A stretch of DNA of 31,550 bases from a virus. A program made the translations under genes and the position numbers. Positions 8,680 through 31,550 of this stretch are shown here, one piece after another. Within the stretch, counting starts at the first letter, position 1; each line of letters opens with the position of its first letter. A model generated the notes under the pieces. It had not been told where the DNA came from and did not search any database. It worked only from the letters and a program-made list of their open reading frames with translations. The stretch is taken from positions 1-31,550 of the IMG/VR virus record IMGVR_UViG_3300032053_002932. One strand, given 5' to 3'.

Positions 8680-9342
8680 ATGGAAGAGGTAAAGGACGTA
8701 ACAGTAATACTTCCCACTTTTTTTGGGAACCAAATGTTACTTAATTGTATTGGGACATTAATGAATCAAAGTCCCGATGTTAAGATACTAGTATATAAAA
8801 ATGATATAGGTTGGTTAAAAGCCGCTAATCATTTAATGCAGTCTATAACAACAGACGTATTATTATTAAATGATGATACTCTTGCTGTATCTGATATTGT
8901 AAAAGAGATGCAAGAACTAGCCTACTCTTCCCCGACAATAGGGGTAGTCGGCGGTAAGTCTCTATCGCTTGACCAACAGACGATTATTAACTATGGAATC
9001 TATGTTGGTCCAGATGGTAATACTGCTCACAGATACTACGGGCATGAGCGGAATTCTGTAAAGGTGGAAAAGCAGCAAGCCGTTGAAGGCTCCTGCTTTT
9101 TTATCAAGCGGGAAGTTATCAATAAGATCGGCTACTTTGATGAAGGCTACGGAATGGGTTTCAGAGAGGAAGTAGACTACTGCTTTAGAGCAAGAGAAGA
9201 AGGTTATCAAGTAGCTTCAACTCCTAAGGCGGAATATATACATCTAGTATCACAAACACATGGCCCATTAGGAATTGGTAATACCACGTTTGAGTACTTT
9301 ATGTCAAAATGGGGCCAGAAGCTAAAGAAGGGTAAGGTCTAA
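8680..9342 (+). CDS. Glycosyltransferase, GT-A fold, family 2-like
   Basis: This 220-residue protein transfers a sugar from a nucleotide-sugar donor. The N-terminal strand VTVILPTFFGN is the usual start of a GT-A fold, a helix with the family pattern follows, and LLLNDDTL (N64-D65-D66) takes the place of the DxD metal/nucleotide site. EGSCFFIKREVINKIGYFDE followed by YGMGFREEVDYCFRA (E163, E164, D166) is characteristic of rhamnosyl/galactofuranosyl-type GT2 enzymes, where the ED pair is near the catalytic base. It lies within the neck genes and is followed, 2 nt after its stop, by a second glycosyltransferase. It has AAGGAG at a good distance. Substrate is unknown; virion protein decoration is a reasonable guess. 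Confidence 0.8.
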   Translation: MEEVKDVTVILPTFFGNQMLLNCIGTLMNQSPDVKILVYKNDIGWLKAANHLMQSITTDVLLLNDDTLAVSDIVKEMQELAYSSPTIGVVGGKSLSLDQQTIINYGIYVGPDGNTAHRYYGHERNSVKVEKQQAVEGSCFFIKREVINKIGYFDEGYGMGFREEVDYCFRAREEGYQVASTPKAEYIHLVSQTHGPLGIGNTTFEYFMSKWGQKLKKGKV

Positions 9343-16089: not shown

Positions 16090-19000
16090 ATGCCGGGTTC
16101 AGATTACAGGGTAAGATTTGTAGGCGATCTTGGAAATCTAGCGCAATTCTCCGCAAGTATTAGAGGGGCTTATAGTTCTATCTCAAGCGCTTACCGTACA
16201 TCTGCTAGTGCCCCGGTAACTTCAATACGCTCTCCAAGCCTACAGACGAGCGGATTGACCACACAAATTGACGCATATAATAGAACCTTAACTCAATCAG
16301 GGCAAGTTTTCCATAGATATGTTAGCGGATATACCGCTGATATGAAGAGACTAGAAGTAAGTGCCCGGTCATTAGGAGTCGGTGGTAGTGGTTATAATAC
16401 TGGAAGAGGGAAGTATGGCTCTTTTGGAACACGGTTAGATAGTGCTGGAAGGGCTATTGTCTCTGGTAAAGATATTAAACCTATATATGACACATTCGCT
16501 ACAGGGCAATATAAAGTAGTTACAGCAGATTTAGATAGGGTAGAGGCTGCACAGAAGCGCTTAATACCGCTAGAGAGACAACTAGCAGCAATTGAAAAGC
16601 AGCGTATTTTTCAATTAGCTCAAATAAATGCTCTACAGGGCAACGCCATTCTTAGAAAAGGTGACTTAGAGACTACAAGATATAGGGCTGGGACTAAAGT
16701 AAATGCGCTGTCTGATATCGCTGGTGGTACAGTGGGGCATATGAAAGTTGATCCTAGTGGCCCTGAGTATAAAAAACTTTTAGATCGGAAAATACTAGCT
16801 CCACTTCCGGGTGCATTACCGGGAAGTCCGCACGTTATGCAAAATCTATTTAAAACGGATGCTGACTTAAATAACGCCATAAGATTAAATCAAATTGCGC
16901 CTGATCAGAGAATACAACAAGGTCTTGCGAGTATACGTAAACTAGGGCCAGTTCGTGCTATATATAATGCGGCTACTAATGATTTGGTTCTCCTTGAATC
17001 AGATATTTCAACATATAAGGCACAAGAGCAGAAAGTTATTAATAGTGCTACAAGAAAATCTAATGCAGCCAAAAGAAAGGCTGCACCACAATTAGCAGCC
17101 CTTGATGACGCTCTAAATAATTCAATAGCCCCAATATCCAAAGACCTTGACTTTCTACTACAGAAGTCTAAAGGTTTTAGAAAGAACTTTATTAGGCAAC
17201 TAGGCATAACGGCTCCCTATTTAGAGCCAATAGCGGATGCCCCAGTAGGTGCTTCGGCAGCAGAGAAGAGCAGAGTTAGAGCCCAACAAGCAAGAATTGC
17301 GCCACAGAGAGAAGCTTTTGCTAAAGAATTATTAGCAAGGGGTATAACTCCAGATTCAGTTAAGATGAACTACGATTATGAGCGTGGAGTATATGGCGTA
17401 ACAGCGGCTGTTAATGGCCTTAATGGTGTTCAAGGGCGTCTTTCTGCCACATTTGATAAGAATCTAAATCAGCTAGAAACAAACGGACGCGGATTACGTG
17501 GATATGGGGGCTTTTTACGTCAGACGGGAAAAGACCTACAGAAAGTATTAGAATGGACTGTTGCTACAACCCTTGTCTTTGGAGCATTAGGGCTAGCAAT
17601 TGGAAGCATATCTAAAATAAATCAGGTAAATATGGATTTGGAGCGATTTGCTATCGCTGCACGAACTTCAAGAGAAGAAACGGATTCGCTATTCAAATCA
17701 GTAGCGCAAATTGCACAAGAAACTGCTACTCCGTTAGTTGAATTAACTGCTGTAATGGATGATATTGCTATTGCTACACGCAAGGCTGGTCAGACATCAG
17801 AACAGTGGCGAGCCTCTATCTTAGACCTTACTAAAGCTGTAGGTATTTTAACTAACTTAACAGGTGTCGATACTGTTAGAGCAACAGACCTTTTGAGTGC
17901 TGCCTATAAGCAACTTCAGATACAACCTAAGCAGATTATAGGCGTATTAAATAAAGTATCTGCTGTAGCCGGTGGAAATGCAAAATCTATTGAAGATATT
18001 GTTTCGGCTCTTGGTAGCGTTTCAACGGCAGCACAGGCTGCTGGATTATCTCTAGATGAACAAATTTCTTCAGTACAGGTTCTATCACAGGTAACAAATA
18101 AGTCCTCTTCAGACCTTGCAACATCCTTTAAGAATCTATTTGGTGCTATAAGTTCACCCGGCTCTGTAAAAATACTTGATAAATTTGGTATTTCTGTAAG
18201 AAATGTAAATGGTGAACTACGTCCATTCCTTGAAATCTATAAAGATATTTATGATGCTAGACAATCCGGTAAAATTAGTGATGGTAATTTCCAAGACGTT
18301 CTAAGGGGTATTTCAGGTGGCCCAAGACGCGCACCTGATGCAGCAGCCCTGCTAGAGAACATGCCTTTAATCTGGGAACAACTCACTAAGTCAGTAAATG
18401 CTACAAATGAAGCCCTTATTGCTAATGCTAGAATTATTGAAACCAACTCTGCTAAGTTACAGAAAATTAAAAGTGCTTTTGATGCAACCCTAATTCAAAA
18501 CTTTACTGATACAGTAAATAAACTAGTTTCTGCTTTAGTTACTTTAGGTACAGCCCTGACTGATATATTTGGTGGTCTAAATGTTAGCGGATTAGTTTCT
18601 GGTGTTACCCAACTGCTACTAATGATTGCTGCTATGGTAGCGCTTAATAAGCTACTAGGACCGGGGGGATTTTTACGTAGGGGAATAAGAGGTTTAAGAG
18701 ACGATTTTGGTGATCTAATTTCTAAAGAAGCAGCTTTTGCATCCCAATACTCTAAAGCTCAAATAGTAAGACTGGGCCAAGGGCCTGCTTCTTTGCCTAG
18801 CTACAGGGGTAATAAGCCAGTCAAGGGATTCGGACCCAACACGACCGCACAGGTTGACGCTTCCATCGCTGGGCTTGCTGGCCGATACGGCAAGATCGGG
18901 TCTGTCTCATGGGATTCTGTATCTGGAACAGCACAAACTGGAGCATACGATGATGGGGTCAAAGGCAATATTTTGCTCAACCGCAACCCGAAGATGTTCG

Positions 19001-22000
19001 CTGGGTTGGGGCTCAATCAGGTCGTAGAACACGAATACGGACATCGTGTTGCCGATGTCATCTCTAGGCAGGGGGTCGTCGCAAGGGCTCGTTTGGGCTA
19101 TGTAAGTATGCGGGCGAGACTTAAGTCTCCTACGGTGTACGGCAGAGGAAGTCCGGGGGAGGCATTCGCGGACCTATTCCAGCGAGTAAACGCGGGCGGC
19201 GTAATACCCAAGGGACAAGAGGGGAATGCCCGTCGAATGCGGGCACTTCTCGATAGATACGCAGTCGGAGTACCAACAGGAGGGGCGTTGCCTCCAATTC
19301 CCGGCTTACGAGTAGTTGGACCCTCCGGTGTTCCTAAGGTTGCTCCTAAGGCTTCTAAATTACCAGCGGGATATACACCAGCAATACCGGGGTTTGTAGG
19401 CCCTTATGCTCCACTAGGCTATACGCCTACTGGTAAAATTAAGAGTCTTCCGCCAAGACAAGGATACAAGGTAGTTGGGGCCATAGGTAATCAGCAATAT
19501 ATTCTAAAACCAGCACCGGGATTTAAGGTAGTTGGACCCATAGGTAATCAGACTTATGTGGCAAATCCAACACCCGCTGCAAATCAAATGTATGAAACCA
19601 CTACCCCCGTGGTTGGAAAATTACCAAAAGATTATAACCCAAAAAATGCCTATCCAACCCTAACCCCAATAAAAGGCTATGAAATAAAGCCAGATGCCAA
19701 TGGTAATCAGCAGTATCATCTAAAGCCTGTTAAGGGCTTTGACGTAGTTGGCCCTCTAGGTAATCAAAGGCTTATGCCTAAAACTCCAGTACCTAAAGGC
19801 GTTGTTATACAACAAGGCTCGGGCGTAGGTTCTACGCTACGGGCTGAAGCAGAACTACTGAAGAATAGAACCCTTGGTAGTTCTAAAGGTAGGATGGCTC
19901 TTGGGGCTGGTGCAGGAGTTGCAGCCGCAGCAGGACTTGCCGGTATTGGAACATTAGTGGGGGGTAAAGGTTCTGGGGCTCTTGGCACAGTAGCTACTAT
20001 TGGACAATCAATAGGGCCGATGTTAATGTTGCTTGGAGGCCCTGCTACTATTGCGGCTGGTGTTGCTTTAACAGCCTTATCTACAGGATTGCAGATTCTC
20101 AATGATGAAGAACAAAAGCAAATTCAGACTCAAAAAAATCTAAAATTATCTATATATGATGAGATAAAAGCTCTACAGGAACAACGCAGAGCAGTTGAAA
20201 CAGCAGGGGCTGCACAAAAGGCTGCTGGAGAAGTTATGCAGTCCTTTAAAGGGAATACTAAATTAACTGTCGAAGAAACTAATCAGTTAAGTCAGGCACA
20301 AAAAGCTTATGTTGAAGCATCTTTTGATCTTATAGATGCAAATTCCCAAATTGCTCAATCTATCGAGGAATTAACGATATTAATCCCACAATTAAAGGAT
20401 GCCTATGGCGGATTGAGTGCAAAAGCCTTGACAGGGTTTGGTCCAGATGCACTAAAGAAACTCGCAGCACAGTTAGCGCAAGACATCTTGGACATAACAG
20501 TCCCCGGTGCTTCTGCAACTACTAAATATACCCCTGTAAAGTCGGGTACTCCCCAATCAATAGTTCTTGGTAAATCGGTATTTGGTGGCAACGACACGCC
20601 CCTCTCTTCGGAACAATTTAGTTCGAAGATTGGGAGCCCACAAGATGCTATTGACTTTTTAAGGGGAGCAGAAAGCGGGAATATTCTTAATGGTAAAGTT
20701 ATACCCAGTGGATTTGAGTTCAATAAGCAGACTGCTGATGCTTTTCGACTACAACTTATGAAGACAGAAGCACGAGATATTGATGGATTTAATGAGGCTA
20801 TAGGATTATTCGGTAAGTACGTTAACATGATTAACCTTCCCGGTGATCAACTATTTAATGCTCTCAACGCACAGGCAGCAATAGTACAATCTAAACTGGC
20901 AGTAGGGGGGCTATTAAGTGGGAAAGCGGATGACAAACAAACACAAGATCAGGGTACTAATGCTGCTGCCCGTATCGCAGTTGCTCAAAAAATATTTAGT
21001 TCAGATGTTGTAAGGGCCTTAAATGCTACTGATGAGTATTTTGCTACTCGTACCGTAGGAGAAACCCCTAGAGCTAATATGCCTACTGTATCTGGTATGG
21101 CAACTACTTTATTTGGACCAGATGGTATATCTGGCCTTATTGGGGATTCCTCATTAGGGATGGATATGACTATGAGGAAGGCTGAAGAACTACTTGAGAT
21201 ATATAAGCTATATCACCCAGAATTAGCTGGTCTAGTTGCGGGAACGCAAGAATATAAGCTTGCTGCATACGAACTTTGGACAGGGGTAAGCTATATGATT
21301 AGCGATGTAGATGAAAAAACTAAAGCCGCAAGTGAGGACATGGTAGCGGCATCAGATGCAATCTTGGCCGCTGCTAATGCATCTAAAATGAGCCTATATG
21401 AAGAATTAAGTAGTCTATATGGACAAAGAAATAGCCCAGACTATAAAGGAAAAGAAGGCCAAGAGAAATATAATGCAGAAGAGAACAGAATTAAGCAGAG
21501 TATTTCAGCAACAAACGCTTTAGGTCAAGCCTTTGCTGCAAATGTTGAATATCTAGATGAGTATAAAGCTGCTCTTGGGGAATTACATTATCTACAAGGC
21601 ATACAATTAATTGAGGATAACAGTCAATTAGGGGATGCTCTAATGGCTACTGCTAAAAGGCTGGGACTAACAGGACATCAAATTAAAATTTTAAAAGGGC
21701 AACTTGTTAATTTATTGAGTGCCATGAGGGAAGTTAAGAACGTAAAAGCCGTATTTAATGTGGAAGCAAATATGCCAACAGCACAATTTAAAGACTACCT
21801 ATTAAAACTTAGGGCAACAGTTATGGCAGTTCTAGTAGCTAGTAAATCTCTGCCCGCTGGCGCGCCCTTGGCCTCATCAATTGTAGCAATGAATAGTGCA
21901 GCATTAAATGCTATAAATAGAGCCTTAGCCTATGTTAGTAAGGAACAAAATTATCAATCTGGGGTTAATGCTAGCCTTGGTTCTGGAAGTGCGGGAGGAG

Positions 22001-22533
22001 GCTCATCATCATCAGGCGGGGGGAGTCATGCGGGTAGGGGTGGTAGCGCTTATAATAAGCCGGGATTACTGGATGTTCCAGAGGAATTTAAGGGTCAGGA
22101 TCGCTCTGTAGCCTCCCTACTAGCAGAAGCGGTTAAAAATGCTAGAAAACTACAGTCTCAAGTACCCGGTGAAACTAAAGCAAATAGGAAAGAGATTGTA
22201 GCAATTCTTGATGGCACAAAGAAGGTATTGCAAACCAAGGGAATTGGTGAAGAGTATCTACGAAGGGCTATGGAGGAACTTACAAATGAGATAAAGAAGC
22301 AAAATGACCTTATGTTGAAAACAGACCAAATAAGCAGGATCAGGGTAGGTGCAGGAAGTTTTGCAGCGATTGCAAACGTTCCAGTAAGTGCTATGGGCAT
22401 TAGTACTGGAGGGCCGGGGCAACCTATCAATGTTAACTTGAACGTTAATGGGCAGATACTTACCCCTGCGCAGTTAGAGCAACTAGCAAACTTGATTGCT
22501 GCTCAGATTAAAAAGGGTATGCTACATAACTAA
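16090..22533 (+). CDS. Tape measure protein with embedded metallopeptidase-like domain
   Basis: This 2147-residue protein sets tail length and is ejected ahead of the DNA. From about residue 490 to 770 it matches the TP901-type tape measure core (for example ATPLVELTAVMDDIAIATRK, GISGGPRRAPDAAALLENM). Hydrophobic segments occur at about 489-510, 838-857 and 1270-1340, typical of membrane-inserting tape measures. Between residues ~905 and 1062 is a GC-rich block with HEYGH (H981, E982, H985) and GEAFADLF (E1024). Then come five ~20-residue imperfect GNQ repeats (1072-1235), long helical regions, a Ser/Gly/Ala linker (1958-1990) and a short C-terminal tail with a NVNLNVNGQ strand. At about 0.15 nm per residue the full chain would imply a tail of up to ~320 nm, less for globular inserts. 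Confidence 0.93.
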   Translation: MPGSDYRVRFVGDLGNLAQFSASIRGAYSSISSAYRTSASAPVTSIRSPSLQTSGLTTQIDAYNRTLTQSGQVFHRYVSGYTADMKRLEVSARSLGVGGSGYNTGRGKYGSFGTRLDSAGRAIVSGKDIKPIYDTFATGQYKVVTADLDRVEAAQKRLIPLERQLAAIEKQRIFQLAQINALQGNAILRKGDLETTRYRAGTKVNALSDIAGGTVGHMKVDPSGPEYKKLLDRKILAPLPGALPGSPHVMQNLFKTDADLNNAIRLNQIAPDQRIQQGLASIRKLGPVRAIYNAATNDLVLLESDISTYKAQEQKVINSATRKSNAAKRKAAPQLAALDDALNNSIAPISKDLDFLLQKSKGFRKNFIRQLGITAPYLEPIADAPVGASAAEKSRVRAQQARIAPQREAFAKELLARGITPDSVKMNYDYERGVYGVTAAVNGLNGVQGRLSATFDKNLNQLETNGRGLRGYGGFLRQTGKDLQKVLEWTVATTLVFGALGLAIGSISKINQVNMDLERFAIAARTSREETDSLFKSVAQIAQETATPLVELTAVMDDIAIATRKAGQTSEQWRASILDLTKAVGILTNLTGVDTVRATDLLSAAYKQLQIQPKQIIGVLNKVSAVAGGNAKSIEDIVSALGSVSTAAQAAGLSLDEQISSVQVLSQVTNKSSSDLATSFKNLFGAISSPGSVKILDKFGISVRNVNGELRPFLEIYKDIYDARQSGKISDGNFQDVLRGISGGPRRAPDAAALLENMPLIWEQLTKSVNATNEALIANARIIETNSAKLQKIKSAFDATLIQNFTDTVNKLVSALVTLGTALTDIFGGLNVSGLVSGVTQLLLMIAAMVALNKLLGPGGFLRRGIRGLRDDFGDLISKEAAFASQYSKAQIVRLGQGPASLPSYRGNKPVKGFGPNTTAQVDASIAGLAGRYGKIGSVSWDSVSGTAQTGAYDDGVKGNILLNRNPKMFAGLGLNQVVEHEYGHRVADVISRQGVVARARLGYVSMRARLKSPTVYGRGSPGEAFADLFQRVNAGGVIPKGQEGNARRMRALLDRYAVGVPTGGALPPIPGLRVVGPSGVPKVAPKASKLPAGYTPAIPGFVGPYAPLGYTPTGKIKSLPPRQGYKVVGAIGNQQYILKPAPGFKVVGPIGNQTYVANPTPAANQMYETTTPVVGKLPKDYNPKNAYPTLTPIKGYEIKPDANGNQQYHLKPVKGFDVVGPLGNQRLMPKTPVPKGVVIQQGSGVGSTLRAEAELLKNRTLGSSKGRMALGAGAGVAAAAGLAGIGTLVGGKGSGALGTVATIGQSIGPMLMLLGGPATIAAGVALTALSTGLQILNDEEQKQIQTQKNLKLSIYDEIKALQEQRRAVETAGAAQKAAGEVMQSFKGNTKLTVEETNQLSQAQKAYVEASFDLIDANSQIAQSIEELTILIPQLKDAYGGLSAKALTGFGPDALKKLAAQLAQDILDITVPGASATTKYTPVKSGTPQSIVLGKSVFGGNDTPLSSEQFSSKIGSPQDAIDFLRGAESGNILNGKVIPSGFEFNKQTADAFRLQLMKTEARDIDGFNEAIGLFGKYVNMINLPGDQLFNALNAQAAIVQSKLAVGGLLSGKADDKQTQDQGTNAAARIAVAQKIFSSDVVRALNATDEYFATRTVGETPRANMPTVSGMATTLFGPDGISGLIGDSSLGMDMTMRKAEELLEIYKLYHPELAGLVAGTQEYKLAAYELWTGVSYMISDVDEKTKAASEDMVAASDAILAAANASKMSLYEELSSLYGQRNSPDYKGKEGQEKYNAEENRIKQSISATNALGQAFAANVEYLDEYKAALGELHYLQGIQLIEDNSQLGDALMATAKRLGLTGHQIKILKGQLVNLLSAMREVKNVKAVFNVEANMPTAQFKDYLLKLRATVMAVLVASKSLPAGAPLASSIVAMNSAALNAINRALAYVSKEQNYQSGVNASLGSGSAGGGSSSSGGGSHAGRGGSAYNKPGLLDVPEEFKGQDRSVASLLAEAVKNARKLQSQVPGETKANRKEIVAILDGTKKVLQTKGIGEEYLRRAMEELTNEIKKQNDLMLKTDQISRIRVGAGSFAAIANVPVSAMGISTGGPGQPINVNLNVNGQILTPAQLEQLANLIAAQIKKGMLHN
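18790..19290 (+). other. GC-rich metallopeptidase-like insert within the tape measure gene
   Basis: This block has markedly higher GC (the 18841 line is 63%, the 19021 line 55%; a typical tape-measure line, 17881, is 40%) and other codon choices (CGG, CGC, GTC, ATC) than its flanks. It encodes HEYGH, the HExxH zinc-binding signature, with a downstream GEAFADLF whose E1024 (39 residues after H985) could be the third zinc ligand as in gluzincin-type peptidases. Upstream GAYDDGVKGNILLN looks like the edge-strand region of such a fold. The chain continues into the tape measure without a break, so it is an embedded domain, not a separate gene. Substrate is unknown. Confidence 0.7.
19303..19794 (+). 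repeat. Imperfect ~20-residue GNQ repeats in the tape measure
   Basis: Five imperfect copies are read in translation, each built round a VVG or G-x-x-V-V-G start and a GNQ centre: LRVVGPSG, YKVVGAIGNQQY, FKVVGPIGNQTY, YEIKPDANGNQQY, FDVVGPLGNQRL. Pro-rich spacers separate them. They follow the metallopeptidase-like block directly and precede the hydrophobic segment. They look like a flexible linker or small strand repeats. Confidence 0.7.
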
Positions 22534-24211: not shown

Positions 24212-27200
24212 ATGTCTAGTCCACAGCGCAGAAAGCGTATTCCGTCCTTACCGGGGGTAAATCATGGGACTGTGCCTTTCGCGTGGACAGGCTTTACCAG
24301 ACTTCCTATGCAGGGTGGATTACCTTTAAAGAATATCCACACTTCTGGGATTGCCCAAGCGCAAGCAAAGATTAGTTCTGTTGGGTTTATACAGGTTGGT
24401 CAGACTCAAGCTGCTATCTATACAACCTCATCTAGCTATTCACAAGCACAGACACAGATTAAATCTACCTATCAGGAATATGCGCAAGCACAGACACAGA
24501 TTAGGCAGCAGTATCGATCTTATGCACAATCTCAAGTGCATATTAAGTCTAGTTATGCTAATTATGCTCAAGCGCAAGTAGATATACTACAGATATATAG
24601 GGGCTATGCTCAAACACAGGCCCTTATAAAGACCACAAGTAGTGTTCAAGCACAAGCACAGGTGGCTATTAAGCAGACTTATAGAGTCTATGCCCAAACA
24701 GGGGGTACGATTCTACAAAGTTATCTACCTATTGCACAGTCTGGTGCTGCTGTTCTTGCTACTTATTTGGGGCTAGCACAGGCTCAAGCGACGATACTTG
24801 CCACCTATCAATCTATCGCTAGTGCGCAAGCAAGTATTAGTATCCAGTACCAAGTTACTGCTAGTACGCAAGCAAGCATTGTGGCTATATATACTGCTAT
24901 GTCTCAGACACAGGCACAAATTCTTGCGACCTATTTAGTATATGCTAATACACAGGCTCAACTTGGTATTATTTTATCCTACCAGCAATACGCACAATCG
25001 GAAGTAGCAATACTTGCGGTATATACTGCTATTTCTCAAGCAGAAGTACATATTTTTGCCACTACTTCTAAAATAGCCCAAGCACAGACAGATATCTTTG
25101 TTTCAGATATTAATGTCTACTCCCAAGCACAGGCTATTCTTAACCAGTCTATGTATGTTGCTCAATCACAGGGTAAAATTATTACCCTAGATAATAATCA
25201 ATATGCACAAGCGCGTGTTGTTGCTGGGCACCTAAAAATTATAACTACTTATTTAGATACATTTAATCGCCCCGATACTACTGCGCCCCCATTTAATCTA
25301 GGTTCTCCAGATATTGGTGCTGCTTGGGCATGGGCTAGTTATGATAGTAATACTACTATTGGTACCTCTACTACGCATGTAGAAAATGGAATCATGGTAG
25401 GACCCGGTTACTATAAATGGGAGAGTATGACGGGTCCTCCGTCAATATCTAGTGGCGATTTCTATATGGATTTCTGGGTACCCGCTCTTAATGAGAATAA
25501 CCTAGATTTCCGATATTATGATACTGCTTGGTATTTTCAAATAAAGCCTTATACTGATACTGATATAGAGGTATTAGGATTAGATAATTCATATATAATA
25601 ACCCCAATTACAAGAAGTTCATGGTATAGAGTTCATGCAACTATTGATACTAGTTCTTCCCAAAAAGTAAAAATTGCTGTATGGAAGGTTGGGGATAGTG
25701 AACCAGCCCAAATAACTATTCAAACTACCTCTACTAGTCATACACAATATTTAGATGTCTATAATACCCCCAGTAATGAATATTCAAAATTTGATAATTT
25801 TAGAATTGAATCTAGCGGTATATTTGTCTATAATCAAGGTTATGCAGCGGCTAATGCACAAATTAAAGCGACAAATAGTAGTTTAGCCCAAGCCCAAGCA
25901 CTTCTTAACCAGTATTGGCGATGGGCGCAGTCTACTGCTGCTATACAGGCTACTTATCAAAAGTATAGCCAATCTCAAACCTTTATCCGTAAATCAGCAG
26001 GATACGCACAGGCCCAGACAAAGATACCTCATCCTAATACTGATGCTTATGGCTTAATGGTTAAAAATGATGGGGCAACTCATCTATATGGATTACATAC
26101 TTCTAATGCTTATCCAAATAATGAGTATGCAACATGGCAAGATGAGTTAGGGTCTATAAATGGTACCGATTATATTTCATCTAGTAGTAGTCAAATAATT
26201 AGCTCTCCAGTTGGTCCTGAGTATACTGGAATATATTTTAGCACCTATAATGAAGTATTTTATTGGGCTAGCACTCTTCCAGAATTAAATACCCCCGTAG
26301 GTGGTATTGGACAATGGACAATAGAAACGTGGGTAAAAGCTCCACCTGTTACTAATATAAAGGCTACAATTTTTGAGATTTATGGGGGCAACTCAAACCA
26401 AAGACAAGTAACTTTAGGTTTTGGGCATGAATCTACCTTTAATGGGACTGGAAATTATATTCGCCTTCAAATAGCTGATATATCTGGCGTACAGACTGTC
26501 TATAATACGGGTATTCAGTATAGTATAAATACTTGGTATCATGTAGCAGTTATTAATGATACAGGTTTCTTTAAAGTATATATAAATGGTCAGTTAGTAA
26601 TCGATATAACTCGTCGTTCTTACTATATCTATGATCGTTACTATTTATACCTTAACTACTCTGGAAACGGTGGCGCTTCTTCAACAACAAGTAGAATAGC
26701 CTATGATAATCTTGCTATTTATCCTTACCCAATTTCACAAAGTATCTTACAATCACACTATAATTACGCTAATACTATTTATTATGGACAGCGTGCTTAT
26801 GCAAGTGCTAGTTTCCAAATCGGCAATCTAGCACCGGGTGCTAGTAATAAGTGGCAACAATTCGCACAAGCAAGTCATCAGATAGGAAATCTAGCACCGG
26901 GTGCTAGTAACAAGTGGCAGCAATTTGCCCAAGCAACAGTACTTATTATCCCATCTAGACAATATGCACAGGCTCTAGCACGCATAACGGATGCTGTAAA
27001 TCAGCAAATCTATGCTCAAGCACAGACTGTTATTATTCCTGTACAGGGAATGCTTAGATACTTTATTCAGAGCAGCGTACAGGATTTCTCTCTTGCAGAT
27101 AGTGGCCTGTTATCTCAGATAACTTCCATGACGGCTGTTACTGACCCAGCCCAAATAAACGATAGTAATCACGGGGATAACTATGGTCTTAGATGGCAGT

Positions 27201-30200
27201 CATGGTTTGTTGCCGATACGTCTGGGGATTGGTGGTTCCAAACCCACTCCGACGATGCCTCTGGTATTTTTATTTATGCTGAGAGCCTTCAATTAGTTGG
27301 TACAGTAAAGACTAACTATCCCGGTGGTAGTGGTGGAGGAACTGCAAGCGGTACAATTGCACTTATTGCTGGAACAAAGTATAAAATCGATGTTAAATAT
27401 GGCGAAGGCGGGGGCAGCGATTATATAGACGTTAAATATAGACGCCCAATTGATCCAGTTGGCTCAGAAAAGTACCTACTTGCAGGATCACCCCCTTGGA
27501 ATGATAAGTCTAATCTTCCATTCTACAGTACTTGGGGCATAGGTTATGCTAATGCCTACTGGATTGATCGTAATGGAGAGTTCTATGTTCGGTATGGTTA
27601 TGCTCAGACTCAGACTAAGATATGGTATCCTGAACAAAAAGGTTATGGGCAAGCACTTACACAAGTAGGTGCCTTTAAATATGCTCAGGCTATTACCCAG
27701 ATTGCCTACGAGCCAGCCACTGTTGATTATAGAGTAACAGTTCTTGCTGATAAACCTATTCTTTATTACCCAATGGATGAATATTATTATGGTGGTAATG
27801 TAGATTATACTGCATCTACTTACTATGATGGTAGTTATCTACCTTCATATGCAGCAGATGGCAATACCAACGATGGCTGGGCAAGTTCTGGTTATAGCGC
27901 TGGTAATACTTGGTGGGAAGTGGGCTGGGGGGCTCCTCAAACAATACGGACAGTTAGAGTAACAAACCGCCCTAGCTATACAATGGGTTCCGGTAGAATT
28001 ATCTTTAGTACAGGTGATTCTGTTAATGTTACTTTCCCAACTGGATCGCGTGTTGTTTCTACTTATAATATAACACCAGTTGTAGGCGCAATATGGATGC
28101 GCCTTATCAGTGATTCTGGCGGCAATAGCGACCCCGGCTTCTCAGAAGTTGAAGCATTTAATGAAGACTCTACTAACCTAGTTAGATTCCCTGTTATACC
28201 AGACCCCTCTAGTGTCCCTCCTGCCGGTGTTGTTAAAACTATAGTTGGTAGACGTAATGCAACATGGGGGTCTGCGACTAAGACAATCTTTAGAGGACCA
28301 TCGGCTATTATTACTGGAACCTCTGTAGATTTTAATAGCGGTCAGGCGTCTGTTCCTGCTCCCACTTATTATAGTGGCTATACAACAGAAGCACTTACAT
28401 TCCCCGGCGCAATCCCCCCAACTGGTAACTGGAAAATATCCAACTCATTCTGGTTGAATGCTGGCGATACTGTCACGATTACCCTTAATAATGTTTATAA
28501 GGGCGGTAGTAATATATCCCTAGGTTTAAACGACTTAATTACTAATGATAACCCATATGAATATATAGGGGTAGGACCTAATACTGGCACTTATACTAGG
28601 ACAGCGGGGCAAACGGGTGTTCATTATGTCTACATCTATCCTCAAGGTACTGTCGGCCCAACTGGTTCTGGTACGATAACATACCCAAATTACCAACTTA
28701 GCGATTCTGCTATTCCTGTTACTGATAACTCTATTGTAACCGTCGAAGCGTGGATTAAACCATCCATTACTGGCGGCGATAGCCCACAGATGTTCTTTGG
28801 GTTTGACAGAAACTACGTTGGAGTTTGGTCAGACGGAAGAGTAGGCTTTGGTGACGGTGCGCAAGGTTACTATAGTGCCGCTGGGGTACTTACTGTTAAT
28901 AATTGGTACCATGTTGTTGCGGTCTTCCATTCATTTAAAGCCGCTAATACTTCTAATAAATTATATGTCAATGGCGCACTTCGAACATTGGCCGTAACTG
29001 GAGCAAATGCAGTCAGATCGGCAAGACAGAACTTTAGTATAAGCGGTTGGCCTACCAATGCAAGCAACCGTTGGCTTGACTCTATAGACGAACTAGCAGT
29101 ATTTAACTATGAGTTAACGCAGGAACAAATTCTTGCACACTATCGATCAGTTAAAAAACAGGTATACGGACTGGCAAATGCGTGGGCTAGGGGACGCTAC
29201 AGTGTTCATGCTAATGCCCAAGTATTTGGTGGTAGACAACCTGATGGCTGGTACCACGATTTTAACGTATTCGCGCAAGCATTAACCGATATTATCGTAC
29301 ATGATAACACAGGAATAGCACAGGCCGGTGCGCTTATTCAGACCGATTATGGCTTGACACGAATGACGTGGAATAATGCCCAATGGGTTGTTGGTGATAT
29401 CTTTAATTGGGGCGATACTGAGTGGGAATTAGGACAGCCTAATTACTCAGATTCAGGTAATCATCCTAGTTCTTATCCCGGTAATAATAACTGGGGTATG
29501 GCATGGTCCGGTAACTTTATCGCAGATGCGGAAGGACTATGGCAGTTTAGAACATCGTCTGATGATGGCTCTGATCTATGGATTAGTGGAACACGGGTTG
29601 TAGATAATAAATTTGGTGCAGGACATGGTAATACAACTGTTGCTGGATCAATCAATCTAATAGCGGGTAATTTCTATACAATCCATACAAGATTTGGTCA
29701 AGGGGCAGTAAATTGGAATATATCTATTCAATACAAGCGACCAGCCGATGCAGCTTGGTACTATTTAACTGATAATGCCCCACCGTGGATTAGGAAGTAC
29801 TGGCAGGGCGGATTTGCACAGGCAACAGCAGAAATTCTACCAACACCAAATGTTAAGGTGTTTGCACAAGCCCAAGCCAAATTAAACTCCTTTAATTACC
29901 CACAAAGGGCTCAGGCGCAAACAGATATCTTACAAACTTACAGTAAGTATGCACAAGCCCTAGCACACGTTGGTTGGCTAAGATTAGCACAAGCACAAGC
30001 ACGATTAATTGCATTTGATGTACCTAAGCATGCCTCTGCTAAAGCACATATTAAGGCTTACGGAGTTAGTAAGCACGCTAGAGCGCTTGCACAAATATCA
30101 CGCACCCAGCACTGTTCTGGAAATGCCGCAGTTGCTATCAAGCAGACCTATCCATTCCGTTATATTAGTACTAACTATGGACTTACAGCACTAGGAGCAA

Positions 30201-31550
30201 CAGTAACACCAGACCCCAATTTCAGTATGGAGGAAACAGTTCCTGAAAATACGCTGGATGGAAGTCCCTATAGTGTCTGGACTAACTTCCTAGCCATTGA
30301 TGCTGGTGCAGATCAATACTTCTATCTTAATCTTGATCTAGGAGTTCCACATATTGTTAGCTCTTATTATATACTTCCCGTTAAGTATAACGTAACGGCT
30401 AATTTACAGTATAGTCAGAATGGTTCTACATGGATAGATATTGTTACAGATATCTACTTCGATGTTAAAATTACTTACCCAATAAGTTATAGTCATGCTA
30501 TAACTGGAGAAATTACTCCCACAACTGCACGTTATTGGAGATTAAAATTTACAAATGGTGGAGATGATAGTAAGGTATCTATCGGCACCTTCCAACTTGG
30601 TATAGCAACTACCCAAAATCCTACCTTTGCGCAAGCACAGGCATTCTTTGGCCGCTTTGGGATCGCGCAAGCGATGTCCTATACCTCACCCGGTTTGTCA
30701 ACATACTGGGCACAGGCAGGGGCACATATAAAAACAACCTCTACTGTATCTGGTAATGCACAATGCTGGTATTTACCCCCTACTGCTCATGGTTTAGCAC
30801 AGGCACTAATTGTTCAAGTCTATAAGAAGCATGGACAAGCAATGGCTTGGGCTCTTCCACCCACGGCTTTTGGGCTGAGCCAAGTCCAGATCAAGACAAC
30901 TTATACGGTACATGGAGCCTCAATAGCAGATATTCGGACAACCTATGGTAAATACGCTATGGCTTTGGCACAGATAACTAAATGTGCGGGCCATGCGCAA
31001 GCTATGGTACGTATTTATCGACGTAGCGCTTATGCTGGACAGGCTAGAGTCTTTATCGGACATTTTGTTCATGGAATAGCCTCTGCATTTATCGTGAAAA
31101 GTAAGGCTTATGGACAATCATATGCTCTGATCAAAAATAACTATGGTAAATATGGTCAGGCTCTTGCATTAATAAGAAGATCAGAAGTATATAGTCTAAG
31201 CACCGCACAAATTAAGAGAACCTATGAAAAGTATGGGTTAGCAGCGACTATGCTCAATCAGCACAGAAAATTTGGGCTAGCCCAGACCTCTGCTGTACGT
31301 ACATATATGCGGCCTTCTCAGGCTATGGCTAAGATTAGGGCACTATCTTATCCATGCGCAGAAGCACAGTGTGTTATCTCAATCCGTCCTATAGTTCGTG
31401 GACAAGCCGAAGCGTTTATTCAGATATGCTCAAAGGGCCACGGGTTGGCTATGGCACAGATAGGTTCCTTTAAATATGCACAGGCTCAGACAAGAGTTAT
31501 AGCGTTCAATGTCCCTAAGGTTGGTAATGCTGCCGGTTATATCTTAGTAG
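24212..31550 (+). CDS. Giant modular tail fibre / adhesin with 14-residue repeats and lectin-like domains (3' partial)
   Basis: ATG 24212 is preceded by GTAGGTG, and the frame stays open for 2446 codons to the window end. Reading from the start: basic N-terminus; array of 14-residue repeats (about 47-345); beta domain with TFNRPD (346-536); short repeats; LamG-like domain (611-845; WTIETWVKAP, NTWYHVAVIN); 63-nt duplication; PA14-like domain (947-1100; TSGDWWFQTHSDDASGIFIY); F5/8C-like domain (1194-1324); LamG-like domain (core 1507-1647; VTVEAWIKP, NNWYHVVAVFH, DELAVFNYELTQEQI); PA14-like domain (1710-1860; DAEGLWQFRTSSDDGSDLWI); repeats; F5/8C-like domain (1992-2132; ARYWRLKFTNGG); repeats to the end. 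All these domain types bind carbohydrates in other proteins, so this is very probably the receptor-binding fibre. No depolymerase active site is seen. Confidence 0.85.
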   Translation, partial: MSSPQRRKRIPSLPGVNHGTVPFAWTGFTRLPMQGGLPLKNIHTSGIAQAQAKISSVGFIQVGQTQAAIYTTSSSYSQAQTQIKSTYQEYAQAQTQIRQQYRSYAQSQVHIKSSYANYAQAQVDILQIYRGYAQTQALIKTTSSVQAQAQVAIKQTYRVYAQTGGTILQSYLPIAQSGAAVLATYLGLAQAQATILATYQSIASAQASISIQYQVTASTQASIVAIYTAMSQTQAQILATYLVYANTQAQLGIILSYQQYAQSEVAILAVYTAISQAEVHIFATTSKIAQAQTDIFVSDINVYSQAQAILNQSMYVAQSQGKIITLDNNQYAQARVVAGHLKIITTYLDTFNRPDTTAPPFNLGSPDIGAAWAWASYDSNTTIGTSTTHVENGIMVGPGYYKWESMTGPPSISSGDFYMDFWVPALNENNLDFRYYDTAWYFQIKPYTDTDIEVLGLDNSYIITPITRSSWYRVHATIDTSSSQKVKIAVWKVGDSEPAQITIQTTSTSHTQYLDVYNTPSNEYSKFDNFRIESSGIFVYNQGYAAANAQIKATNSSLAQAQALLNQYWRWAQSTAAIQATYQKYSQSQTFIRKSAGYAQAQTKIPHPNTDAYGLMVKNDGATHLYGLHTSNAYPNNEYATWQDELGSINGTDYISSSSSQIISSPVGPEYTGIYFSTYNEVFYWASTLPELNTPVGGIGQWTIETWVKAPPVTNIKATIFEIYGGNSNQRQVTLGFGHESTFNGTGNYIRLQIADISGVQTVYNTGIQYSINTWYHVAVINDTGFFKVYINGQLVIDITRRSYYIYDRYYLYLNYSGNGGASSTTSRIAYDNLAIYPYPISQSILQSHYNYANTIYYGQRAYASASFQIGNLAPGASNKWQQFAQASHQIGNLAPGASNKWQQFAQATVLIIPSRQYAQALARITDAVNQQIYAQAQTVIIPVQGMLRYFIQSSVQDFSLADSGLLSQITSMTAVTDPAQINDSNHGDNYGLRWQSWFVADTSGDWWFQTHSDDASGIFIYAESLQLVGTVKTNYPGGSGGGTASGTIALIAGTKYKIDVKYGEGGGSDYIDVKYRRPIDPVGSEKYLLAGSPPWNDKSNLPFYSTWGIGYANAYWIDRNGEFYVRYGYAQTQTKIWYPEQKGYGQALTQVGAFKYAQAITQIAYEPATVDYRVTVLADKPILYYPMDEYYYGGNVDYTASTYYDGSYLPSYAADGNTNDGWASSGYSAGNTWWEVGWGAPQTIRTVRVTNRPSYTMGSGRIIFSTGDSVNVTFPTGSRVVSTYNITPVVGAIWMRLISDSGGNSDPGFSEVEAFNEDSTNLVRFPVIPDPSSVPPAGVVKTIVGRRNATWGSATKTIFRGPSAIITGTSVDFNSGQASVPAPTYYSGYTTEALTFPGAIPPTGNWKISNSFWLNAGDTVTITLNNVYKGGSNISLGLNDLITNDNPYEYIGVGPNTGTYTRTAGQTGVHYVYIYPQGTVGPTGSGTITYPNYQLSDSAIPVTDNSIVTVEAWIKPSITGGDSPQMFFGFDRNYVGVWSDGRVGFGDGAQGYYSAAGVLTVNNWYHVVAVFHSFKAANTSNKLYVNGALRTLAVTGANAVRSARQNFSISGWPTNASNRWLDSIDELAVFNYELTQEQILAHYRSVKKQVYGLANAWARGRYSVHANAQVFGGRQPDGWYHDFNVFAQALTDIIVHDNTGIAQAGALIQTDYGLTRMTWNNAQWVVGDIFNWGDTEWELGQPNYSDSGNHPSSYPGNNNWGMAWSGNFIADAEGLWQFRTSSDDGSDLWISGTRVVDNKFGAGHGNTTVAGSINLIAGNFYTIHTRFGQGAVNWNISIQYKRPADAAWYYLTDNAPPWIRKYWQGGFAQATAEILPTPNVKVFAQAQAKLNSFNYPQRAQAQTDILQTYSKYAQALAHVGWLRLAQAQARLIAFDVPKHASAKAHIKAYGVSKHARALAQISRTQHCSGNAAVAIKQTYPFRYISTNYGLTALGATVTPDPNFSMEETVPENTLDGSPYSVWTNFLAIDAGADQYFYLNLDLGVPHIVSSYYILPVKYNVTANLQYSQNGSTWIDIVTDIYFDVKITYPISYSHAITGEITPTTARYWRLKFTNGGDDSKVSIGTFQLGIATTQNPTFAQAQAFFGRFGIAQAMSYTSPGLSTYWAQAGAHIKTTSTVSGNAQCWYLPPTAHGLAQALIVQVYKKHGQAMAWALPPTAFGLSQVQIKTTYTVHGASIADIRTTYGKYAMALAQITKCAGHAQAMVRIYRRSAYAGQARVFIGHFVHGIASAFIVKSKAYGQSYALIKNNYGKYGQALALIRRSEVYSLSTAQIKRTYEKYGLAATMLNQHRKFGLAQTSAVRTYMRPSQAMAKIRALSYPCAEAQCVISIRPIVRGQAEAFIQICSKGHGLAMAQIGSFKYAQAQTRVIAFNVPKVGNAAGYILV
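24350..25250 (+). repeat. Array of ~21 coding 14-residue (42-nt) repeats, block 1
   Basis: Units follow [Y/I/L]-A-Q-x-Q-x-x-I-x-x-x-Y-x-x, as in YAQAQTQIRQQYRS and LAQAQATILATYQS. Most are exactly 14 residues; a few differ by one or two. The DNA is less conserved than the protein, which points to selection on the protein pattern. Hydrophobic residues fall at positions 1, 8 and 12, with Ala at 4, a spacing compatible with a helical rod or with short strands. Confidence 0.85.
26816..26938 (+). repeat. 63-nt tandem duplication in the fibre gene
   Basis: The 20-residue unit QIGNLAPGASNKWQQFAQAS occurs at 26816-26875 and again at 26879-26938, identical except the last residue. Its DNA differs mostly at third positions. 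It ends in FAQA, linking it to the 14-residue repeat pattern. Confidence 0.9.
29812..30150 (+). repeat. 14-residue-type repeats, block between PA14-2 and F5/8C-2
   Basis: Units include FAQATAEILPTPNVKV, FAQAQAKLNSFNYPQ, AQAQTDILQTYSK, LAQAQARLIAFDVPKH, with the AQAQ core retained but spacing looser (about 14-17 residues) than in block 1. Confidence 0.7.
30625..31550 (+). repeat. 14-residue-type repeats, C-terminal block (continues beyond the window)
   Basis: More diverged units such as HGLAQALIVQVYKK, YGQSYALIKNNYGK, YGQALALIRRSEV, YSLSTAQIKRTYEK, YAQAQTRVIAFNVPK. They resemble block 1 with Gly and basic residues replacing many Gln. The array runs to the last base. Confidence 0.75.

What the first reader, a model, noticed from the sequence alone, without database searches (positions are those of the whole stretch)
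18790..19290. Metallopeptidase-like domain inserted in the tape measure, with foreign base composition
HEYGH at residues 981-985 and a GEAFAD glutamate at 1024 indicate a zinc peptidase of HExxH type. The DNA encoding it is about 55-63% GC versus about 40% around it, with different codon usage, and the frame continues without interruption. Peptidases in tape measures are known as entry enzymes, usually peptidoglycan hydrolases; an HExxH protein-type peptidase would more naturally cut a host surface protein, an S-layer or the tape measure itself.
Basis: partly seen in the sequence, partly recalled or inferred. Interest (0 to 1): 0.85.

Follow-up and report, generated by a model that had tools for sequence, protein, structure and literature searches.

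The report
Metalloprotease domain inside phage tape measure
A phage's tail-length "ruler" protein carries, in its middle, a zinc protease domain of the same fold as the anthrax lethal factor and Pro-Pro endopeptidase catalytic domains, probably acquired from elsewhere, which would let the virus carry a protein-cutting enzyme into the cell it infects.

Summary
Residues ~905-1060 of the 2147-aa tape measure protein (TMP, 16090-22533) contain HEYGH (981-985) and GEAFAD (E1024). GC is 53-58% against about 41% for the window. The synonymous third-position excess (z 7.3) is the largest in the window, though part of the terminase gene comes close (6.1). The domain is a real zinc peptidase by three tests. 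A profile of 105 phage zincins that did not include it scores it 27.0 bits, against at most 17.3 for 600 motif-planted decoys. AlphaFold2 with a 103-row alignment gives pLDDT 81.5 and pTM 0.80. The model matches family M34/ATLF (lethal factor Z 12.5; PPEP-1/2/3 Z about 9). Catalytic Y1017 lies seven residues before E1024, as in the Pro-Pro endopeptidases. The domain sits in a Pro-rich, repeat-bearing linker between two hydrophobic TMP stretches. One other, differently classed TMP (L028) carries a 24-30% identical domain with all active-site residues kept. Phage M34-like domains are otherwise common in portal, MuF and polyvalent fusions. The substrate is unknown: self-cleavage of the adjacent linker and cleavage of a host envelope protein are both open; peptidoglycan hydrolysis is unlikely. 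New variant of a known kind.

The parts
16090..22533 (+). Tail tape measure protein, TP901/PhageMin_Tail type, 2147 aa
17662..18642 (+). TMP homology region (TIGR01760, residues 525-851), ending in hydrophobic stretch ~826-852
   Evidence: homology to one TMP family reaches about residue 879
18796..19293 (+). M34/ATLF-like zincin domain, residues 903-1068: HEYGH 981-985, Y1017, E1024
   Evidence: profile versus decoys, AF2 model, structure matches, conserved columns
18802..19290 (+). Foreign-composition DNA segment (GC3 excess, z 7.3)
19277..19812 (+). Pro-rich linker with repeats (GFKVVGPxGNQxYxxKP-type units), residues ~1063-1241; contains ALPPIPG (Pro-Pro at 1068-1069) and SLPPRQ (1121-1122)
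   Evidence: the KPVKGF word also occurs just before the domain (residues 909-914)
19897..20112 (+). Second hydrophobic stretch of the TMP (residues ~1270-1340)

Best explanation
The segment is an intact zinc endopeptidase domain of the M34 (ATLF-like) fold, carried as cargo in the tape measure protein and flanked by a flexible Pro-rich repeat linker. Shown or well supported: the domain identity, the intact active site (H981, E982, H985, Y1017, E1024), the foreign codon usage, and its place between two hydrophobic TMP stretches. Inferred mechanism: the domain is packed with the TMP in the tail tube, leaves with it at DNA ejection, (re)folds and binds zinc in the host envelope or cytoplasm, and cleaves protein. 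The target is either the TMP's own linker, freeing the membrane-active parts, or a host envelope protein, clearing the path for DNA. The phage probably gained it by in-frame transfer of a domain cassette that circulates among phage portal, MuF and polyvalent proteins.
For: Profile of 105 other phage zincins: 27.0 bits versus a maximum of 17.3 in 600 decoys carrying the same motifs. As a held-out sequence it scores E 4.3e-7 among 4553 ORFs. AF2 pLDDT 81.5, pTM 0.80, with helix, three strands, HExxH helix and Glu helix. VIA-align Z 12.5 (rmsd 3.5 A, 153 aligned) to lethal factor 581-778 and about 9 to PPEP-1/2/3. Profile A1 finds lethal factor at 9e-13 and PPEP-1 at 1e-4 in the PDB. ATLF is the commonest Pfam family among relatives, 35 of 103. 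Columns that the search pattern did not select agree: Y1017 (75/98), G951 (61/100), F1030 (74/105), P1040 (85/86). A second TMP, L028, has the domain. GC3 z 7.3. TMPs carrying enzymes and being processed are established (PMC1796659; PMC10713586; P23-45 TMP metallopeptidase, PMC10770324).
Against: The window domain itself has no Pfam, NCBIfam or significant PHROG match. The AF2 model rests on remote, motif-selected rows at 12-30% identity; without them pLDDT is 38, so the rows help define the fold. Foldseek E-values against the PDB are not below 0.001. No close relative of this TMP was found, so selection on the domain could not be measured. Folding of a globular domain inside a narrow tail tube is unexplained, as for all TMP-borne enzymes. 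The substrate is unknown.
Confidence: 0.72

Rival explanations
1. Self-processing: the domain cleaves the TMP's own Pro-rich linker (for example at ALP|PIP just C-terminal of it), during assembly or on ejection, to release the N- and C-terminal TMP parts.
For: The only two Pro-Pro pairs of the 2147-aa TMP (1068-1069, 1121-1122) lie within about 100 residues after E1024; ALPPIP fits the xxP|PxP pattern, and a PPEP-3 substrate is Ac-EPLPPPP. Autoproteolysis is the role proposed for zincins in phage polyvalent proteins and likely in P1 DdrB (PMC5512222). TMP cleavage is known in T5-like phages and lambda.
Against: The linker is Pro-rich anyway, so two PP pairs there are unremarkable. M34 members differ in specificity and the PPEP specificity elements (S-loop, diverting loop) were not identified here. 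No proteomics of this phage.
Confidence: 0.35
2. Entry protease against a host envelope protein: after ejection the domain cuts a surface, S-layer, periplasmic or membrane protein that hinders DNA entry, or an intracellular defence protein.
For: M34 relatives cut specific proteins in trans (lethal factor, PPEPs). The domain lies between two hydrophobic TMP stretches that could place it at the membrane. Same-type domains ride on portal and MuF fusions next to ART, NUDIX and zeta-toxin domains, consistent with injected effectors.
Against: No host known; no target-like motif tested.
Confidence: 0.4
3. Peptidoglycan hydrolase, the usual role of enzymes in TMPs.
For: Known precedent of TMP-borne muralytic domains (TM4 motif 3; PMC1796659).
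Against: No M23, NlpC/P60, lysozyme or Rpf match in the TMP; the fold is M34, a family of protein endopeptidases.
Confidence: 0.08
4. Catalytically dead structural spacer or a recent neutral insertion.
For: Foreign composition suggests recent arrival.
Against: All five active-site residues intact; frame kept; the domain in a second TMP also keeps them.
Confidence: 0.1
5. Chance motif or chimeric assembly.
For: Composition shift at both edges.
Against: Expected HExxH 0.002 per protein; profile score far above decoys; frame open through both junctions and repeat words shared with the linker on both sides.
Confidence: 0.03

Closest known systems
Peptidase family M34 / ATLF-like: lethal factor catalytic domain and Pro-Pro endopeptidases PPEP-1/2/3
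   Same: Fold (Z 12.5 and about 9), HExxH helix, Tyr seven residues before the third-ligand Glu (PPEP-3 Tyr190/Glu197; here Y1017/E1024), near-identical HExxH-to-Glu distance (44 versus 43).
   Different: Only 10-17% identity; no direct Pfam ATLF match for the window domain; embedded in a TMP rather than secreted; substrate unknown.
Zincin-like MPTase domains of phage polyvalent proteins (Iyer et al. 2017, PMC5512222)
   Same: Same core (N-terminal helix, three-stranded sheet, HExxH helix, Glu helix); embedded in large virion-associated proteins.
   Different: That paper's text contains no mention of 'tape'; here the carrier is a TMP.
TMP-embedded enzymes: mycobacteriophage motifs 1-3 (PMC1796659), P23-45 TMP metallopeptidase and RNA polymerase (PMC10770324)
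   Same: Enzyme domain inside a TMP, with hydrophobic segments.
   Different: Mycobacteriophage motif 3 (and Rpf-like motif 1) act on the cell wall; here a protein-endopeptidase fold. The family of the P23-45 metallopeptidase is not given in the text seen.
L028 TMP (IMG/VR contig, phrog_58 type)
   Same: M34-like domain mid-TMP, upstream of hydrophobic stretches, 24-30% identical to the window domain, active site kept.
   Different: Matches different TMP families; domain GC3 0.68 versus 0.53 for the rest, but neighbouring parts of that gene are similar.

Membership tests
M34 / ATLF-like peptidase fold | HExxH zinc-binding helix | tested here: met
   HEYGH 981-985; in the AF2 helix at model residues 73-90
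M34 / ATLF-like peptidase fold | Third ligand Glu on a downstream helix, with catalytic Tyr seven residues before it | tested here: met
   Y1017 and E1024; spacing as Tyr190/Glu197 of PPEP-3; Y in 75 of 98 relatives
M34 / ATLF-like peptidase fold | Three-dimensional fold | tested here: met
   Model pLDDT 81.5; Z 12.5 lethal factor, about 9 PPEPs; predicted, not solved
Pfam ATLF (PF07737) | Direct match to the Pfam ATLF model | tested here: not met
   No hit for the window domain at E <= 1 or 0.01; 35 of 103 relatives do match. So it is called ATLF-like, not filed in PF07737
M34 / ATLF-like peptidase fold | Zinc-dependent proteolysis | not testable with these tools
   needs biochemistry
Pro-Pro endopeptidase (PPEP) | Cleavage between two prolines; S-loop and diverting loop | not tested
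   Only a Pro-Pro site near the domain was noted
Pro-Pro endopeptidase (PPEP) | Secreted or cell-wall-attached extracellular protease | tested here: not met
   The domain is internal to a phage TMP
TMP-borne peptidoglycan hydrolase | M23, NlpC/P60, lysozyme or Rpf domain in the TMP | tested here: not met
   No such match in Pfam or NCBIfam
Tail tape measure protein (TP901 type) | TIGR01760 / PhageMin_Tail match and length | tested here: met
   60.1 bits (cut-off 28.8) and 69.3 bits (cut-off 33.2)
Polyvalent-protein MPTase | MPTase-PolyVal profile (PF18818) | tested here: not met
   No hit for the window domain

The most novel reading that the evidence does not exclude
A self-cutting tape measure: the M34 domain recognises the Pro-rich linker beside it (ALP|PIP) and splits the TMP when it folds outside the tail tube, so that folding on ejection acts as a switch that frees the membrane-channel part of the TMP.
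Probability: 0.18. Interest if true: 0.75.

Novelty: new variant of a known kind. Interest (0 to 1): 0.5.

Why it matters
How tape measure proteins change from ruler to entry channel, and why they are often cleaved, is not settled. A TMP with its own protein endopeptidase gives a direct, mutable test (E982) of whether a phage brings its own processing or entry protease. It also extends the range of carriers of the phage M34-like domain from portal, MuF and polyvalent fusions to tape measures, with two cases in differently classed TMPs.

Tried and rejected
(1) Direct searches with the domain or the TMP found no relatives in viral contigs, phages or plasmids; relatives came only from HExGH...EAFAD/E patterns in viral contigs, so they are motif-selected, which is why decoys with planted motifs were used. 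(2) Single-sequence AF2 failed (pLDDT 38). (3) Genome-contig pattern scans returned nothing; not interpreted as absence. (4) Alignments A1 and A2 were too diverse for locus searches. (5) Terminase relatives L165-L168 are too short to reach the TMP. (6) L028, L054 and L114 domains have no phage-collection match. (7) GC content alone as evidence of foreign origin was rejected in favour of GC3 given amino acids, because the 19800-20100 GC peak is explained by Ala/Gly codons. (8) Structural matches to non-catalytic toxin scaffold domains (edema factor, Certhrax, Z about 9) share the scaffold and do not bear on activity. (9) A paper search for ATLF or M34 domains in tape measures found none, in an open-licence library only.

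Full report
OBSERVATION. The ORF at 16090-22533 encodes 2147 aa and is a TP901-type tape measure protein. HEYGH lies at 981-985 and GEAFAD at 1023-1028. It is the only HExxH in the protein; the expected number from composition is 0.002. GC rises to 0.53-0.58 across 18800-19399. Corrected for amino acids, GC-ending codons in residues 904-1066 number 88 against 47.7 expected (z 7.3), the highest 163-codon window in the 22 genes. The background is over-dispersed (SD 1.75) and a terminase stretch reaches 6.1, so the shift is real but not unique in the window. The second GC peak in the TMP (19800-20100) has ordinary GC3 and is only Ala/Gly-rich sequence.

IS IT A PEPTIDASE? No library recognises the domain directly. 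Because blastable relatives were absent, I scanned viral contigs for HExGH...EAFA(D/E) in two codon versions, which gave 163 loci where I expected roughly two by chance (my own estimate from pattern length and collection size). Most hits form one similarity cluster: 105 of 129 distinct domains at E < 1e-6. A profile of these 105, none from the window, scores the TMP at 27.0 bits over residues 947-1032. Among 600 decoys that carry the same motifs at the same spacing (planted elsewhere in the TMP, or with the domain shuffled around them) the best is 17.3. Agreement therefore goes beyond the motif. Columns outside the search pattern, such as G951, Y1017, F1030 and P1040, also agree.

FOLD. AlphaFold2 with the 103-row alignment gives pLDDT 81.5 and pTM 0.80, with the zincin order helix, three strands, HExxH helix, Glu helix. 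Foldseek ranks lethal factor and PPEPs first in the PDB, with weak E-values, and phage proteins named 'Lethal factor' first among viral models (E 2e-4). VIA-align gives Z 12.5 over 153 residues for the lethal factor catalytic domain and about 9.0-9.4 for PPEP-1 and -2, with PPEP-3 at 8.7-8.9. The profile finds lethal factor in the PDB by sequence at 9e-13 and PPEP-1 at 1e-4. Pfam ATLF is the commonest hit among relatives. In PPEP-3 the oxyanion Tyr190 precedes the zinc ligand Glu197 by seven residues (PMC12828418); here Y1017 precedes E1024 by seven. The model depends on the remote rows (single-sequence pLDDT 38), so it is supportive rather than independent of the profile result.

SETTING. TMP homology runs to about residue 879 and ends in a hydrophobic stretch (826-852). 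The zincin follows, then a Pro-rich linker with repeats (GYKVVGAIGNQQYILKPAPGFKVVGPIGNQ...; a 71-nt direct repeat 76% identical), then a second hydrophobic stretch (1270-1340). The word KPVKGF occurs both just before the domain (909) and at the end of the linker (1212), which suggests the cassette lies inside the repeat linker. The two Pro-Pro pairs of the whole TMP are both in this linker, the first as ALPPIPG directly after the domain.

RELATIVES. The two other long relatives that I classed by profile are fusions of portal or head proteins: L051 is portal + zeta-toxin-like kinase + zincin, and L091 is MuF + NUDIX + ART + zincin; eight of the 103 domains match a head-morphogenesis PHROG. Among long ORFs only one other has hydrophobic stretches like a TMP and it is one: L028 (phrog_58, E 1.5e-14), with the domain at 1150-1290 of a 2758-aa open frame, 24-30% identical to the window domain, and H, E, H, Y and E all kept. 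The two TMPs match different PHROG TMP families, which suggests separate acquisitions; the small sample prevents a firm statement.

MECHANISM. Inferred: the domain leaves the tail with the TMP and cleaves protein, either the TMP linker or a host envelope protein. Precedents are TMP processing in T5-like phages and lambda, TMP-borne enzymes (PMC1796659, PMC10770324), and the autoprocessing or effector roles proposed for zincins in phage polyvalent proteins (PMC5512222). I put host-protein cleavage and self-cleavage at similar likelihood (about 0.40 and 0.35). Peptidoglycan hydrolysis is unlikely because the fold family acts on proteins.

NOVELTY. Enzymes in TMPs and M34-like domains in phages are both known. 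An M34-like protease in a TMP was not found in the papers I could search, so this is a new variant of a known kind.

Noticed in passing
window 24212-31549 (+): Very long open fibre-like ORF (2446 aa, running off the contig) built of many degenerate 'YAQAQTxI' repeats with LamG-3, PA14 and F5/8-type-C carbohydrate-binding domains.
   Followed up: partly
window ~1050-1690 (terminase gene, codons ~117-330): GC3 excess almost as strong as in the zincin segment (z up to 6.1).
   Followed up: no
window 8680-9342 (+): Family 2 glycosyltransferase-like gene inside the head/connector gene block.
   Followed up: no
L051:5810-12205 (-): Single 2132-aa ORF joining a Mu-type portal, a zeta-toxin-like kinase and an M34-like zincin.
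   Followed up: no
L091:729-6839 (+): MuF-type head protein fused to NUDIX, ADP-ribosyltransferase and an M34-like zincin.
   Followed up: no
L089 and L095: One ORF with two HExGH...EAFAE zincin domains about 240 residues apart.
   Followed up: no
L165:1-16789: Contig with a terminase 100% identical to the window's, from another IMG/VR record, too short to reach the TMP.
   Followed up: partly
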